Made by a program: the position numbers and the translations under genes. 64,000 nt of DNA from assembly GCA_019671135.1 (NCBI GenBank), contig JAHRHY010000005.1, positions 372,001 to 436,000 of the forward strand. Reading direction: 5' to 3'. The stretch is from Linnemannia hyalina. Lineage: Eukaryota > Mortierellomycota > Mortierellomycetes > Mortierellales > Mortierellaceae. The notes under the pieces were generated by a model that made no database searches, was not told the DNA's origin, and saw only the letters and a program-made list of their open reading frames with translations. Of this stretch, positions 22,089-30,125 are shown piece after piece (positions within the stretch are counted from its first letter, which is position 1; each line of letters starts with the position of its first letter).

Positions 22089-23063
22089 GTACAAAATGGG
22101 GGAAGATGAGAGATGAGGAGAGGCAATATCCAGGAATCGACTGGCCATTTCCTTTTTTTGCTCTGCAGTCTCTCTTATCGTCTACTTCAAAGTATTAGAC
22201 CTTTAGAATACCAGCAAAGAAATGGAATGCTACTTTACTACTATCGATGAACGCTGTCTGCTCTATGCTGTATCCTCAATGTATTTTGTCAATGCAGAAT
22301 AGGTCGAGAGGGAGGTGGTGAAGGGCAACGCTCGTTCTCTTCTGAGACTCCGATGTGATCTTTTGTTGTTGATTGGGAGTGTGTGTTGAGACGCTTGTGC
22401 CAAGATCAAAAGAAATGCTCCATGTCACCTTCCTTCGCCATTTTCTCACATTTTCTGGGCTGTAATCACGTGTCGCTCCATATGTTAACAATGTGAAAAT
22501 GAGGGTGACTTTAAGACGGTTTCAGGCGCCGGGTACCGGGTCTAGAGTCTTTTTTTTAAAAAAAATTGTTCATCGTGTACATTCATATCTTTTATTCTAG
22601 TCAAAGCATGACAGAAGATCGGAGGGTTGTGAACAATGGGCTATGGAATACCATGATACTCGTTGGGGTCTTGAAGTCCTCGTCCTTCAACTTGGTGGCC
22701 TTGTAGCAGAGACAAACCCTTAATTTCAAAAAAATCTGGAACTGATCAGTTCCAGAATCCATCCGAGGGATAATTTTTTTGGTGGCGGCAAAAGTTGAAC
22801 TATCACAAACCGCTGCTTTCCCTTCTCTTTTTCCCCCTCATGCTCATTTCCCCGCACTTTTTTTTTCTTGACTTGAGCATTCCTTTTGGAGAAAGGCGGG
22901 GGCAAAGAGGAAAGAGAAAAGAGACTGGGTGTTCGTATGGCATCCATGAGGGACGTGTCAGTTCTCTGGGGGCGCCTGGTTGTCTCAATCTCGCGTGGGG
23001 GTGGTGATGATTGCGTATATCCCTTAATCCGTAGAAGGGGATAATGTAAACTATAGTTTCTAT
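22089..23063. other. Intergenic; 3' flank of the XPG–Fanzor gene
   Basis: No protein gene recognised. It contains a 22-bp perfect palindrome at 22735–22756 and TCTATAGA-type short repeats at about 23050–23070. Because guide RNAs of characterised Fanzor/TnpB systems come from sequence next to the 3' end of the nuclease gene, 22700–23063 (minus strand) is the candidate place to look for one; the sequence alone does not show it. Confidence 0.4.
22735..22756. repeat. 22-bp perfect palindrome
   Basis: TCTGGAACTGATCAGTTCCA + GA is its own reverse complement. It lies 308 bp beyond the stop of the XPG–Fanzor gene and could be a protein-binding site, an element end or an RNA hairpin. Confidence 0.85.
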
Positions 23064-26000
23064 CTATAGAGGTTTGGTTTGTTTGGGGGGTCTTGCAAGG
23101 GGCTCGGGCCGTCCTAGAGACTTGAGGTACTGTTCTCCGATCAAAGCGATGTTGTGCGCCCCCACTCCATCTCGGTGAATCCACCGAGTGCACTCAACAC
23201 AGGCGCATGTCCTCATCGACGGCTTGGCGAGGCGGGTGGCTCGGTTCTCAACCACACATGTTGGACACATGGTGGAAGTAAGATACTCGTCGACCAGGGC
23301 AGCCTTGTATCCGAGCGCAGCACTCTATCGGTGCAGGAATAATAAAATTGTGTTCCATAGATTTGCCATGGCATCATGAGTGCACACAATCAAGACAAAA
23401 AGATACAACCATGCCTTTCACAATTTTTTTTTGCCTTTCGTACCTGCTGTAAAAGACGTCTGAGAAACGTGGTGTGCACCGAAGAGAGATTAAAGCCAGA
23501 CCGGAAGGTTCCATTCCCCAGGGCAAAAAAAACTTTTCTTTGGTGGACGGGTACGCCCTCACATGCCTCATCCACCATCCGCAAAACGCCAGCGACGGCC
23601 AGATCCAACTCCGACATTTTCGCCATTCTGTGCTCGTGAACCGCTACCTTCCATTCTCTTGACGCGTAAATCCCGTGGATCAGCGGTTCCTGCTCGTAGT
23701 ACTTCTTGTGAGCTGCCGTCAAAGCATCCAACGAGGTGTCGTAGTTTGTTGAGGGGAGAGAATTCTCTAGGTCGTGGACAGACGGGAGAGTGGTGAGCTT
23801 GTCCAGGTCGGTAATCCGTGTCCAAAGGGATGAGTCGACAACATCGCCTGGACCAGCTGTTGGGTGTCGCCTTTTCCAATGCTGTTCCCAATCTCGGAAG
23901 GCCAGAGTAGGCTGGTATAGGGAGGCCCTCTTGATCAGCAGATTGATGACTTTTCCACCGGGAAGTGTCAAACAAAATGCACCACTCACTACCTCTCCGG
24001 GATCAATACCGACGACAATGACTGAATCCAGGTCGTCGCCAAACGCGTCGATAAGATGCTGCCGCGTTGGATAACGCTTCTCGATCCTAGAAAGAAACTC
24101 ACTGTAATTTGGGGATTGGCGGGGTTTTGTAAGGTCATACGCGAGAATCTGCAGCTGGTGGCCATCCGTCCTGATATAGTTGTTGAGGGCGTAGCGGTAA
24201 GAACGCGGCTGCTGACGTGGGGTGGGAAGAGGCGGTGGGGTGGAGGTCGTCGATGACGATGACGTTGATGATGGCAACGGTGGTGTCGGGGCCGTGAGGG
24301 AGGCGTTGTGCCGTTCTCGGAAAAAATTGACCTTATTCGTCAAATACCGTGCGAGCTCTAACTGTCCGTAGATGTGTGGATGGGCCTCCTCACGCTCAGC
24401 CATGGTTGTTGTCCTCTTCCCGTATGTCGTCTGCTGCTTATTCCTGGCTTCCTTGATGACATCTCGGTCACCGATGAATAGTTCTTTGATCACATCTCCG
24501 TACGAAGAACGCTGTTTTGCCGCTGCCCAGTTGTGAGTGTAGCGGGTGTCCTCCCATACGTTGTCCAACTGAACTGCCTTCTCTCCCCAGAGAAGCGCAA
24601 CCAACGCTTCCTCGTTGATGTCGATGAAGGAATCGCTCATTTTGGCCTGGGTGCAGAACCGGGGCCGCTTGGATGATGGTAAGAGGAGGAAATATCGCCA
24701 GCAGAGTTGAATATGACCCGGCTTGAAAATGATCTTCTTGGATCGCTTGAGGGCGTCGTCGTCGTCCACACCCTCGTTAACGTCAGCAGCCCCGGCATCA
24801 CCACCAGCGTCGGTGCCATCTTGATCTATTTCAGGAAGACCATCGCAATCAATGGACAGCTTGGAGAGCTGGCATTGCATAAACAAAAGGAGTGTTAAAA
24901 TATGTTTTACACCCCATTGAAAATATTTGACAAACTGAATGGATATGGATAGATGGTACCTTTGTTCTAAGAGTCTCCGGTATTCTCCTGTAATGCAGTT
25001 TCTGATCTAGGCAGATCTTGGGTGCAAGTTCCGCGATGATATTACTCAAAGCCAGATCCGTTGAGTTGAGGGCTTTGAACCCTGGGCACAGCGTCTTCTT
25101 GAACTCGTTAAACGTCGAGATTGCTTCAGCGACAGCATCCTTGCTCTTGTCCGACGCGGGTGGACGTCCTTGGGGGACAATGGAATTCCTCAAGACGAAG
25201 GACAGTAGGTTTTGGACAAACCTTTCCGCCCAATCGGAATCCAGGATCTTCTCTAGGAAGCTCTCGTCCGGTCCATCCTCTGCCTGGTTCAGTCCAGTCT
25301 CGATCAGCGGCTGTAGAATGCGCATCTCGATAAGCTTGTACACAATGTGTTTGGCGCTATTGACGGTAGAGACTGCCGAACTCACGTGTTGGGTTAGCTG
25401 CGCAACCTCTGCTTTCGACAGATTGGTTGATCTTCCTAGGCAGCCTTGCAGGGATCCAGTCGTGAGCGTGACCGTTGCGAAAACAGACTGGAACGCTCTC
25501 TTCAAGGCCTTGGGTCCAGCTATTCCTTTAGGTTCGCCAAGGAGTTTTTTCTTTTTCTTCTTGGCAGCGGGGGCAGGCACTTGGTCGATACGGGGGGATT
25601 GCTCCTTGGGCTTTGAAGGACGGGGGGTCGACGGCTTCAATCCTGAAAGTTCCACGACATCAACAGGGCTGGCCTTTTCTAGGAAAACAGTGTCCGGCAC
25701 ATAGCGATCTTGCACGTCTGTGCGCGAGCGGAATCTAGATGCGATTTTGCAATGAGTTGTGTTAAGGTGGAAATATATGTATATAGCTGGACAAGGCGGA
25801 GAAAAATACCAGGAGAAAAGATATACCTGGAACGACGCCACTTCTGTCGTCGCCGCTGGAGGGCACGTGAACCATGTCGGCGTTGTTTTTTAATCTTTTG
25901 CTTGTGCGATGGTGGATGTTCGGCTGGGCCATGCGTCTGCCTGATGGAAGGTGATCCCGCTGATGTAGCTTGCGGATATGGTGCTGATCCTGCCTTGGGT

Positions 26001-27704
26001 GCCGTTGGGAGTGGTGGTGGCGTTGCCTCTGCGTCTGTCGCCGCCCCCTGAGAAGCTGGATCTACTAGCAGCCCAGGCGGCAACGATCCCGTCCGACTCG
26101 CGGAAAAGCGACGCCAATCATTGTAGGCTTTGTTGAATTCTGTTTCCTTAATTATGGCCATCAGTCGTGTGTGTGTATCGGCCGCCGGGCTGATCCTGTT
26201 GTTGTCCAGAGTGGTTTCCTCGCAAAGCACGAATGTCTTGAGAGCATGGCCGAATTCTGTCACATCTACACGCAGCTGTCGATCGGCCGTTTCGATCCTC
26301 CTCAGATCCTTGTCGTGTGCCTTCACCGTTGGGTTAGGATTGCATCGCAGTCGACGACGTGCGCTTTGGGTGGCTGAGTCCTTGATTGTACGGGCCTTTT
26401 GGTGTATTATGTCAAGGTAGCGCCTAACATAGATCCGAACCACCTCCACTCGATCTTGGCCAACCGTTCCATCAAGACCTGTCATCTTGAACTGACGGAT
26501 CGTATCGACATTGGATGTCAAGCCATAGGAAAAAACTCCGTTGGTGTAGTCGTTGTTCGATACCAGAGCGGCAAGCGTTAGATGTACAGGGGTCGGAAGG
26601 CCATGCTCGTTCAGAAGCTCATCTTTGTGGAAAGTAGTCCAAGTGTTCTTGACTGGCATGGTGACGGACATGATTGACTCGAATGCCATGAGATCGGAGT
26701 CCTTGGTGATAACTCGGATATCTCCGGGTACGGCAGCGTTGTTGACTGTCCGCGCAATGCACGTGTCGCTTTGGTTGAGACATTGGCAAATCGTCCATCC
26801 ACTCTGACGCAGTACTTCCGAAACGGCGCGCAATGCCTCCGGTGGTGCTCGGTACGACGCCTTCAGGCGTTTGTATAGCTGTCTTTTGTTGTGCAGCTTG
26901 CCCTCCGTGTAATCTCGTTCAAGTGTTTCCAACTGCTTGGACAGCGCCTGATCTCGTTTGCCGTGCGCCCATTCCTTCTCCATTGATCGTAGACCATCCA
27001 TATGGAGCATTGTGATGTCCTTAGACAATCGTGAGGAGAGAATCTTCTCAATTGCGGCTCCGACAGATCGAAAATCCTATTGGAAACAGCGAATTATTAT
27101 TTTGGTCACAGCAATTTAGCTTTTCTCCAGATAGCATGAATCATTTAACTTTTTTCCAGATCAGTACAATCCATTTAGCTTTTCTCCAGATGGTATGATT
27201 TATGGTACTTACAATGACCTTTTCCTGGGCGCAGATTGTGGTCAGAGCGCCGCTCTCGTCGAACCGAATCTGGGATGGCTGTGTTGCCAGCAATCGCTGC
27301 ATGTCTTCAACGAGAGTCGACGACCCGGAGCTGATTTGGAGGGGTCGGAGGCGTTTGTTAGAGGAAGCAGTGTCGGCGGTGTCCGCATCGTCGACGTCGG
27401 CTGCTCGTTTTGGGCTGGATGAAGCCTGCCGTGTAGATGTTGTTGTGTGAGTAGACATGCCCGCGCCATCGACGTCGGCTGCTCGCTCTGGGCCGGATGA
27501 AGTCTGCTGTGTCGATGTTGTTGTGTGAGTAGATAATTGACATCGGGCGGACTTTGCAGCGAACTGCACTGTTTTATGGAAACTCAGCGAGTTCACCAAC
27601 GCAAAAAACATCGACGCAAAATCTACTTCACATCTCTTCTTGGTTAGATCTTCCTCCACTCCGTCTGTCGCCTTGATCCACCCGGTGAGATTTGTGATGC
27701 CCAT
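23064..27704 (-). CDS. XPG/FEN1-like nuclease fused to Fanzor/TnpB-like RuvC nuclease
   Basis: Five exons (27704–27213, 27076–25827, 25734–24960, 24868–23444, 23324–23064) close in frame to 1400 residues. The N-terminal third looks like an XPG/FEN1 nuclease: MGITNLTGWI start, VDFAS (Asp 28), HMDG (Asp 191), NQSDTCIA (Asp 268), ITKDSD (Asp 290/292) and NNDYTNGV with a helix-turn-helix-like region (Asp 340). A variable, Lys- and Pro-rich middle follows. The C-terminus has the RuvC-type pattern of Fanzor/TnpB proteins: VVGIDPG (Asp 1128), FALGNGTF (about 1288–1295), VDEYLTSTMCPTC (Glu 1327 and first zinc Cys pair), CACVEC (second pair) and HRDGVGAHNI (Asp 1366). Known Fanzors are RNA-guided DNA nucleases carried by eukaryotic transposons. 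Fusion to an XPG module is read directly from frame-consistent introns but needs a transcript. No stop or frameshift is seen. The alternative is two adjacent genes. Confidence 0.72.
27114..27201. repeat. Three tandem ~29-bp repeats inside intron 1
   Basis: Units beginning ATTTAGCTTTTCTCCAGAT recur at about 27114, 27143 (with ATTTAACTTTTTTCCAGAT) and 27173. They fill most of intron 1 of the XPG–Fanzor gene. Confidence 0.8.
27395..27545. repeat. In-frame duplication in exon 1 of the XPG–Fanzor gene
   Basis: Two imperfect copies of a segment encoding STHTTTST(Q/R)Q...RAADVD follow each other. They lie in the low-complexity region after the first nuclease motif and keep the frame open. Confidence 0.8.
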
Positions 27705-28319
27705 TGCTGTAATTCTAAGTAATTCACAATTGAAGGTTGATGGTTAGCGCGAGTCTGATTTCATAGATTCTCTCAATAGCACGGGTCGCAATCACTTTCA
27801 ACATCGGCCTTACATAGGTCTGTTGAAGCTCAATTGAGAAGGGGGGCAGTTTAGGAGAAGGGGGAGAAGGGGGTAGTTTAAAAGAAAGGGACACGAGGCG
27901 ATGCAGAACGGTGAAAAAGAAGCTGGTGGTCTTCATTCACTCAGCCTCAGCCGCTCAGTCACCGTGAACGTCAGTGAGCGAATTAAGGGGTAGGATGGTT
28001 CTTTCGCACCAATCCCATGCATTTCAGCCTCAGTGGACAGACACTGAGATGCAACGCTATCGGCGCGGGCACAGGACCCTTTCTAAAACTCAGGGCGCGT
28101 ATGATACTCCTAAATCATTCTTGGTGCAAAGAAGACCTTGCAGAGAGAGCAGATTCGCTGGGTGGGTTGAGGATATGCTTGTGTTATGCCTTCTCGTTTA
28201 TTTTATCTGCACAGGATGCAGCCAGTCATGAGTAGTTCAGTAATTCATCGTTTGGTCCCTTGAATTTTTTCGAGACATAAGGGGATACTTAGGTAGGGGT
28301 GTCGCGACATTTGGCGGAC
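27705..28319. other. Intergenic between XPG–Fanzor gene and piggyBac relic
   Basis: Putative promoter side of the XPG–Fanzor gene. Two small hairpins occur: CGCTCA...TGAGCG (about 27952–27980) and CTCAGTG-GACAGA-CACTGAG (about 28027–28046). No gene seen; element ends could not be fixed by eye. Confidence 0.45.
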
Positions 28320-29563
28320 ACTATCAGATCCTTAGCCAGGAACTATCGGAACTCCCTTTGATGCATGGAAGAGCCGAAGAGTTTGTTGATAAGGTACGCA
28401 TTGATGATTGTTGTATCCAGTAATCAGAAGAAGATCGGAGCCCATGCGCGATAAGTCCTGAGCTGAGTCGAATAGTAGCTGCATAACTGGTCGGCAATGT
28501 CGACTCCGTTCATGTGGTGGTTGTTGTCATCGATGATTTTGGGATGGGAAGTAACGCCATGGAACGTCCTTTATGAGCAGCCCGCACTGACTTTGCGCTG
28601 GCGCTTGTCTCTCGAGGGCGTCTGCGATCTTGGACAACGGATCAGTCGTTGTCGCCGAGGCTGAGGGCATGGACGGTGAAGAGTATGGAGACAGGTCTAT
28701 TGTCCATCCAGAACACGGTAAGAACCTGAAGTGGGTCTGGCGATTGTCGCAGTTAGCTTTTATAGCCTAGCAGAGGGCAAGAGTGGTAACTCTCTTCGTT
28801 AAATAAAAGAAAAGGAAGCGAAGCACCTATCTATCACAGGCTCTACTTTTGAGAACCAATGTTGCTCAGGCTCGTTGGGGTTGGAGACATGAAAAAAACG
28901 CTTCAGTTGTTCGAAGCGGACGAGGGACATGAAGGTAGTGATGTTGTGTTGAGGACATTCAGGGAAGGTTGACCAATACTCAGAGACAGAGTTCTGCCTG
29001 AACACGCCCATGTAGACAATGATGCCGAGGAATGTGCGCAGTTCGTCAGGTGTGGTCTTTACCCATTGGCGCGATCCCTCTCCTGTGCCGGCTCCTTTTG
29101 ATGCTGCATATGCGTTAGTGTTGTCTGCCAAATCCGTCAATACTGGGTCGGAGAAGAAGAGTGTGAAAATTGTCAATGGTGATAGTTCACTGTCGAGTCG
29201 AAGTGCACGGGGAAGGTTGGATTGTGCTGGGTGTCCATCCTTGTAGTGGCGAAAGATATTGTCGAAATCTAGTACAGGCGGGAGTTCTCTAGTCTCACGA
29301 ACGGGCTTCTTAGCAGCCTTCTTGGCAGCCTTCATTTTCTTTGTCGGTGGAGCTGTAGCATCTATCACCCCTTCATCTCCTGCCTTCTCCTCCTCCTCCT
29401 CGTCCCCAGAGCTATCTGTACCAGGCGTTGGTCGAGTACGACAACGGACCGAAAACAACTCCTCCTCCTCCTGTGCCTCGTCAACCTCCTCCGCAGATGC
29501 TACTACGGTGCCTTGAGAGTCAGAAACGTCAAAGGAACCGAGGAACTCGAGACTGGAGTCCAT
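28320..29563 (-). pseudogene. piggyBac-type transposase relic
   Basis: The start is at 29563 (MDSSLEFLGSFDV). An acidic N-terminus and a Lys-rich patch (KKMKAAKKAAKK) lead into the piggyBac N-terminal domain: SPLTIFTLFFSDPVL, WVKTTPDELRTFLGIIVYMG, EYWSTFPECP and RFEQLKRFFHVSNP, then a stop at 28799. The central DDE catalytic part is mostly missing. Downstream, in shifting frames and with several stops, come a VFWMDNRPVSILFT-like block (about 28700) and the hallmark NHHMNGVDIADQL ... YRAWAPIFF (about 28525–28430), where an expected Trp codon is TGA. The element is therefore dead: internal deletion, frameshift and nonsense codons. It sits about 0.6 kb upstream of the XPG–Fanzor gene on the same strand. 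Confidence 0.8.
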
Positions 29564-30125
29564 GAGTGAGTAGGGTGAAGTCGATGTGTGAGAAAAAAAA
29601 GGTAATGGGTTGCGGGATGATGATGAGAAAAAAAGAGCTGAATTCGAGAGTGATGAATGTAATGTGACGAAGACGACAAGGACACTCCCACGATGTAGTC
29701 TTCTAACCCGTTTTATTGGAAACCTGGATAAATCGAAAAAAATGTGGTGCAAATTTGCACCACAAACAAACTAGGGGATAAGGCAAACAACGAGGGATTA
29801 TGACGGCGGGATTTGTATTGTTTAGCGCGATTGGTGAAATGCAGTTAGTTTGTCTGAGATAATGTCTGATGAACGGGGATGGTGTGTGTACTGGATGCAA
29901 GTAGCCGTCCGCGTCCTGTTTGTAGATGTGCACTTTGGCGTTCTTCCCCGCAGTCTCGAATGACTTTATCGCGATAGGGCGCATAGGCAGGGAATTGAGA
30001 AAGGAGGAGGGTGTAAAGAAGTAAAGTAACAGAAGGAAATACACGGAGATGAGAGGGTAGGTCATTCCGGATCCTCTCCTTTGTGTTCGTGTTCGCGTTG
30101 TTTGTGCATTATCTGATAATGGTAT

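What the first reader, a model, noticed from the sequence alone, without database searches (positions are those of the whole stretch)
23064..27704. Predicted single protein joining an XPG/FEN1-type nuclease to a Fanzor/TnpB-type RuvC nuclease
Seen: five frame-consistent exons give 1400 residues with the XPG acidic set (Asp 28, 191, 268, 290, 292, 340) and, at the C-terminus, VVGIDPG, VDEYLTSTMCPTC, CACVEC and HRDGVGAHNI. Known: Fanzor and TnpB are RNA-guided nucleases of transposons; XPG/FEN1 enzymes cut branched or flapped DNA. A fused flap-type nuclease could process the ends or nicks made by the RuvC module. I know of no described protein with this order.
Basis: partly seen in the sequence, partly recalled or inferred. 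Interest (0 to 1): 0.9.

Follow-up and report, generated by a model that had tools for sequence, protein, structure and literature searches.

The report
Fanzor fused to a flap nuclease
A fungal transposon gene encodes one long protein whose front half folds like the DNA-repair nucleases EXO1/FEN1 and whose back half is a complete Fanzor, the eukaryotic relative of CRISPR nucleases, a two-nuclease design that I did not find described.

The parts
27213..27704 (-). Exon 1: start codon, XPG N-region with D28, and a variable Ser/Thr-rich insert
   Evidence: the same start MGI/MGV in family 2, P0003, P0004 and P0006, the same exon boundary in family 2
25827..27076 (-). Exon 2: rest of the XPG/EXO1/FEN1-like nuclease (D191, K198, R205, D268, D290, D292, D340), helical extension and basic linker
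24960..25734 (-). Exon 3: end of linker and start of the Fanzor1 WED/REC region
23444..24868 (-). Exon 4: REC/WED and RuvC-I (GIDPG, D1128)
23064..23324 (-). Exon 5: alternative Glu (E1327), C4 zinc ribbon/TNB, RuvC-III (HRD, D1366), stop
   Evidence: (PF07282 at residues 1305-1373)
26234..27704 (-). XPG/EXO1/FEN1-like domain, about residues 1-445 (interrupted by intron 1); limits carried over from the orthologue P0003
23091..25490 (-). Fanzor1 core, about residues 663-1392 (interrupted by introns 3 and 4); limits carried over from the relative P0004
   Evidence: AlphaFold2 of P0004 533-1363; first 7 PDB matches all Fanzor1
23020..29778 (-). Mobile element, ends TCCCC...GGGA, TA on both sides
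   Evidence: 12 family-1 copies fetched (window copy included), left end read in 6 of them, right end in 12
28799..29560 (-). Truncated piggyBac-type transposase remnant (PF13843, profile positions 1-115 of 349)
   Evidence: (E 6.5e-24)
23051..23069 (-). Hairpin CTATAG-ATAGAAA-CTATAG, candidate omega-RNA stem-loop 1 (its 5' arm overlaps the last codon and the stop)
23018..23043 (-). Terminal hairpin TATCCC...GGGATA, candidate omega-RNA stem 2; a guide would start directly after it in flanking DNA
   Evidence: 56-nt stretch with both hairpins: window copy z -0.68, not better than shuffles; 71-nt stretch of family 2: z -4.18

Best explanation
It is a Fanzor1 with an XPG/EXO1/FEN1-type nuclease fused to its N-terminus through a basic linker, encoded by a multicopy DNA transposon of Linnemannia hyalina (identity about 0.95 likely). 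Shown here: one conserved open frame, both folds (in models of close relatives), joint conservation, and position at the element's right end. Inferred: the 3' end of the gene/element gives an omega-RNA (two hairpins) whose guide is the genomic DNA just beyond the right end. The Fanzor half binds it, recognises a TTA-like motif at the insertion site, opens an R-loop on the allele without the element and cuts. The XPG half then cuts the displaced strand at the R-loop edge or trims/resects the new 5' end, steering repair to homologous copying of the element into the break (mechanism about 0.45 likely).
Against: No cDNA, RNA-seq or enzyme data. The window lineage alone gives only E 0.024 to an XPG/FEN1 chain (5 of 6 hits at E<=10 are XPG-type, one is a myotonin kinase) and no Pfam XPG hit; of 14 relatives scanned XPG_I passes its cut-off in 3. 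Q266 stands at the position of FEN1 Glu158 (numbering recalled). By sequence the RuvC-TNB part finds Fanzor/TnpB structures only at E about 0.035, with unrelated SET-protein chains at 0.31. 29 of 91 TNB matches have no XPG match upstream and 22 of 84 XPG loci no TNB downstream. Half of the splits of the two trees disagree. The window copy's 3' fold is no better than shuffles. Only 3 of 12 family-1 copies keep an essentially full frame under the window's splice sites.
Confidence: 0.6

Rival explanations
1. The XPG half is catalytically dead or weak in the window's lineage and serves as a structure-specific DNA-binding module that docks on the R-loop or flap; only RuvC cuts.
For: Q266 replaces the Glu kept in the three lineage-2 rows (TEAD) and is invariant in the 4 rows of the lineage-1 alignment; no Pfam XPG hit in the window protein.
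Against: D191, D268, D290, D292, D340 and Lys/Arg at 198/205 are invariant in 8 of 8 rows and D28 in the 4 lineage-1 rows; residues 1-400 look to be under purifying selection between families 1 and 2 (dN/dS about 0.20, but dS 2.7 is near saturation).
Confidence: 0.3
2. The XPG half acts in transposition itself (for example trimming element ends or gaps), and the RNA-guided half is used only afterwards.
For: The gene lies in a TA-flanked element with many near-identical copies; the piggyBac-type transposase ORF beside it is interrupted in the window, so another activity may be needed.
Against: The two halves travel together in 62 of 84 XPG-like loci and their trees share the deepest split. This weighs little: a protein used in both steps would look the same. 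Family 2 shows no transposase domain in five ORFs upstream of the gene in L028, though its left end was not reached.
Confidence: 0.15
3. Gene-model artefact: two neighbouring genes, or a piggyBac-Fanzor fusion as the database models P0001 and P0002 say.
For: P0001 and P0002 join a piggyBac start to the Fanzor frame and skip the start of exon 1.
Against: P0003, P0004, P0006 and family 2 start at the same MGI/MGV; 8 of 8 family-2 copies (L028 being the template) keep the whole 1351-residue frame with the same introns; two folds recovered.
Confidence: 0.03

Closest known systems
Fanzor1 (SpuFz1, GtFz1, PpFz1)
   Same: DPG RuvC-I, alternative Glu near the C4 finger, RD motif, overall fold, place at the right end of a TE, SL1 + SL2 hairpins before the guide position
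   Different: Most Fz1 proteins are 600-700 residues with conserved organisation (PMC11423790 passage); this one has 1400 with a second nuclease in front
EXO1 / FEN1 / XPG (Rad2) 5' nucleases
   Different: About 100-residue variable insert in the window lineage; Gln for one Glu; fused to an RNA-guided nuclease; not among the four loci of this genome that match XPG_N
PpFz1 FRI domain (Parasitella)
   Same: An extra domain acquired by a Fanzor1 of an early-diverging fungus (passages)
   Different: FRI is about 100 residues inside RuvC and binds cyclophilin; described as a small domain of three helices and three sheets, not as a nuclease
'Fanzor flap endonuclease homologs (Fendons)', PMC11071296
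   Same: One sentence uses Fanzor and flap endonuclease together for genes of animal DNA viruses (passages)
   Different: No domain description, no fungal element and no fusion is stated in the passages seen
Academ transposons with an XPG nuclease (recalled; one search found no held paper)
   Same: XPG domain inside a eukaryotic DNA transposon protein
   Different: Not Fanzor, as far as I recall

Membership tests
Fanzor1 | RuvC-I DPG motif | tested here: met
   GIDPGE, D1128; definition from PMC10711439 section 23. Lineage-2 relatives have DGG/DAG instead
Fanzor1 | Alternative Glu about six residues before the C4 finger | tested here: met
   E1327, first Cys 1334 (definition)
Fanzor1 | D-X(125,275)-[TS][TS]XX-C4-X(5,50)-RD | tested here: met
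   D1128, T1330-S1331, C1334/C1337/C1356/C1359, R1365-D1366; motif from PMC3627910 passage
Fanzor1 | WED-REC-RuvC-TNB fold | tested here: met
   Ranks 1-7 are Fanzor1; the model is of relative P0004, mean pLDDT 62.6
Fanzor1 | Bound omega-RNA with guide from the flank of the right end | not testable with these tools
   Only predicted hairpins
Fanzor1 | Located in a eukaryotic transposable element | tested here: met
   12 family-1 copies with a common right end and different flanks; left end common in the 6 read
XPG/FEN1/EXO1 5' nucleases | PIN/FEN-like fold | tested here: met
   (model of orthologue P0003 1-480)
XPG/FEN1/EXO1 5' nucleases | Pfam XPG_N / XPG_I over cut-off | tested here: inconclusive
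   Window protein: no hit. XPG_I over cut-off in 3 of 14 relatives scanned (P0016, P0021, P0030), under it in 9 more, absent in P0004 and P0020 at E<=0.5; XPG_N in none of the 7 rows of A1
XPG/FEN1/EXO1 5' nucleases | Seven metal-site acids (FEN1 numbering recalled) | tested here: inconclusive
   Six acids present; the Glu158 position is Q266 in the window lineage, Glu in lineage 2
XPG/FEN1/EXO1 5' nucleases | Structure-specific 5' nuclease activity | not testable with these tools
   No assay possible
piggyBac element | Complete DDE_Tnp_1_7 transposase and TTAA duplication | tested here: not met
   The window ORF covers profile positions 1-115 of 349 and then meets a stop; ends flanked by TA, not TTAA

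The most novel reading that the evidence does not exclude
In Mortierellaceae a whole branch of Fanzor1 works as a two-nuclease machine: an RNA-guided RuvC nuclease with a built-in EXO1/FEN1-type 5' nuclease that turns each guided cut into a resected, recombination-ready break, so that transposons home by copying. It would be a natural counterpart of engineered RNA-guided-nuclease/exonuclease fusions (recalled).
Probability: 0.45. Interest if true: 0.95.

Novelty: new variant of a known kind. Interest (0 to 1): 0.88.

Why it matters
All Fanzors and TnpBs known to me use a single RuvC site. A natural branch that carries a second, repair-type nuclease in the same chain would show how a selfish RNA-guided element can control the fate of its own cut, would bear directly on the open question of what Fanzors do for transposons, and could offer an editor that cuts and resects. 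The architecture is already testable: full-length frames exist (8 of 8 family-2 copies fetched).

Tried and rejected
Pfam on the window protein for XPG: nothing at E<=1; the homology became clear only with relatives. PDB profile of the window lineage alone: E 0.024. Full-length profile A2 against PDB: 22 hits at E<=1, all XPG-type, no Fanzor; RuvC-TNB alone gave E about 0.035. Viral contigs with A3: 91 pattern matches, none confirmed as a relative. Database search with A2: 8 hits, 6 named and all from genera that I place in Mortierellaceae, 2 short ones without a name (P0008, P0009); only the 7991 candidates sharing most words were scored, so fusions elsewhere are not excluded. I looked up the taxonomy of two species; the rest is recalled. 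Two more XPG-half queries in the own genome: one search adds one locus to those (C8:482346, where my hand-typed list held 61 of the 62 linked loci), and none beyond that by eye. Trees: the first try failed on P0020. In one search, 13 of 15 proteins went in (P0019 and P0027 fell out because a boundary motif was missing); P0020 and P0021, tried, were left out beforehand; P0003 and P0005 are partial. A piggyBac-Fanzor fusion as in P0001/P0002 was rejected as a gene-model artefact. Calling the element a piggyBac was rejected (TA, not TTAA). Empty-site proof of the TA duplication was not attempted. Literature: ten searches; Fanzor+XPG 0 papers, Fanzor+Mortierell 0, Fanzor+FEN1 1 (listing only), Fanzor+flap endonuclease 2 (passages of one seen), TnpB+XPG 1 (one passage seen). 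Jiang et al. 2023 (recalled) was not looked for by name, supplements could not be read, and most subscription papers are not held, so absence from print is not proven.

Full report
1. What is there. On the minus strand, exons 27704-27213, 27076-25827, 25734-24960, 24868-23444 and 23324-23064 join to one frame of 1400 residues with four GT-AG introns. The genome is very probably Linnemannia hyalina: database proteins KI688_003228 and KI688_007005 sit on contigs of 1,824,220 and 843,840 bases, the lengths of G000 contigs C6 and C15 (taxonomy).

4. One protein, not two. Family 2 in the same genome (59% identical in exon 4) has the same start, the same four introns and a 1351-residue frame, intact in 8 of 8 copies, L028 being the template. 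Conserved residues run across the intron that separates the halves. Between the families, third codon positions differ at 0.66 against 0.41 and 0.35 in residues 1-400, and 0.62 against 0.33 and 0.22 in residues 581-1400 (dS near or past saturation). P0004 was annotated by others as one 1363-residue protein matching 100% of the query. In lineage 2, P0021 (L. gamsii) carries XPG_I above its cut-off and TNB in one protein, and P0015 (Podila verticillata) TNB plus XPG_I just under the cut-off. Of 14 relatives scanned, 12 show XPG_I at E<=0.5 and 3 above the cut-off. Of 28 database hits, 10 have TNB, 4 XPG_I and 2 both in the precomputed Pfam column.

5. It is the commoner arrangement in this genome. 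PF07282 has 91 matches. Matches of two XPG-half queries (100, 68) merge to 84 loci; 62 of 84 have a TNB match 2.2-5.3 kb downstream on the same strand, against 3 of 84 with a TNB within 7 kb upstream on the same strand and 2 of 84 on the opposite strand. These loci are not independent: by my reading about half of the 62 are copies of three repeated families. 29 of 91 TNB matches have no XPG match upstream, and 22 of 84 XPG loci no TNB downstream. PF00867 alone, a curated model made without my alignments, finds 13 matches; four lie in genes that also match XPG_N, and 6 of the other 9 (4 of these 6 over the cut-off) lie about 3.4-4.2 kb upstream of a TNB match on the same strand. Trees of the two halves share 5 of 10 splits, including the deepest one (label shuffles: mean 0.1, maximum 3 in 2000). 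The other five differ, among them the place of family 2. This fits one old fusion and mostly joint descent, but does not prove it.

6. The element. Family-1 copies share sequence from 29781 to 23018 and then diverge. In the six copies whose left end was read the element is preceded by TTA; in 12 of 12 family-1 and 8 of 8 family-2 right ends it is followed by TA. That fits a TA duplication and a TTA-like target motif, as the CATA motif of SpuFz1 ends in TA (PMC10432273 passages). A piggyBac-type ORF near the left end is truncated in the window; five ORFs upstream of family 2 in L028 show no transposase domain. Of 12 family-1 copies, judged with the window's splice sites, the window copy keeps the full frame, two more stop three residues early, and nine are broken (in two of the nine, L015 and L017, one end anchor was not found).

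7. A candidate guide RNA. At the stop codon lies CTATAGATAGAAACTATAG; family 2 has the same sequence with one change although there it is wholly after the stop. In the genome, the motif (23 nt, up to 2 mismatches) has 24 matches (reversed control 0), and 23 of them lie beside TNB matches of families 1 and 2. A second hairpin ends at the element's end, with different inner sequence in the two families. The stretch with both hairpins folds better than shuffles in family 2 (71 nt, z -4.18) but not in the window copy (56 nt, z -0.68), and with 76-86 more bases upstream neither does (z 0.49 for the window, -0.82 for family 2). SpuFz1 and PpFz1 RNAs have the same order SL1, SL2, guide (PMC11423790 section 5).

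8. How it most likely works. Inferred: RNA-guided cutting of the empty allele by the Fanzor half, as proposed for TnpB and held possible for Fanzor (PMC10432273 passages), with 5' strand processing by the XPG half, favouring copying by homologous recombination. XPG is reported to cut one R-loop flank in vitro (PMC7286691 passage). The main doubt is whether the XPG site is active in the window's lineage.

9. Novelty. In the passages and sections that I saw, most Fanzor1 proteins are described as 600-700 residues, and the held library has no paper with both Fanzor and XPG. One preprint sentence speaks of 'Fanzor flap endonuclease homologs' in animal viruses. I file the protein as a Fanzor1 of new architecture: a new variant of a known kind.

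Noticed in passing
L046, L047, L049; P0010-P0037: A second, deeply diverged XPG-Fanzor lineage with DGG/DAG in place of DPG at RuvC-I (where that part is present), TEAD at the FEN1 Glu158/Glu160 position in the XPG halves aligned, and no long insert after the XPG N-region.
   Followed up: partly
window 28799-29560 and P0001, P0002: Database gene models join a piggyBac transposase remnant to the Fanzor frame and skip the start of exon 1, which hides the XPG start and gives a 'PiggyBac transposable element' label.
   Followed up: yes
window 29157-29334: 9 of 12 family-1 copies lack about 176 bases that the window copy, L014 and L015 have inside the piggyBac-type ORF.
   Followed up: no
window 27380-27533: Two direct copies of a 76-base unit (about 87% identical) within the variable insert of exon 1.
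   Followed up: no
L012, right end: Several hundred bases of other sequence lie between the two 3' hairpins of this copy, a probable nested insertion.
   Followed up: no
G000:C8:536465-536487: The one match (of 24) to the 3' hairpin motif that is not beside a family-1 or family-2 TNB match; perhaps a remnant or a gene-less element.
   Followed up: no
G000, 29 TNB matches and 22 XPG loci: TNB matches without XPG upstream and XPG loci without TNB downstream; whether they are decayed copies, losses or separate genes is open.
   Followed up: no
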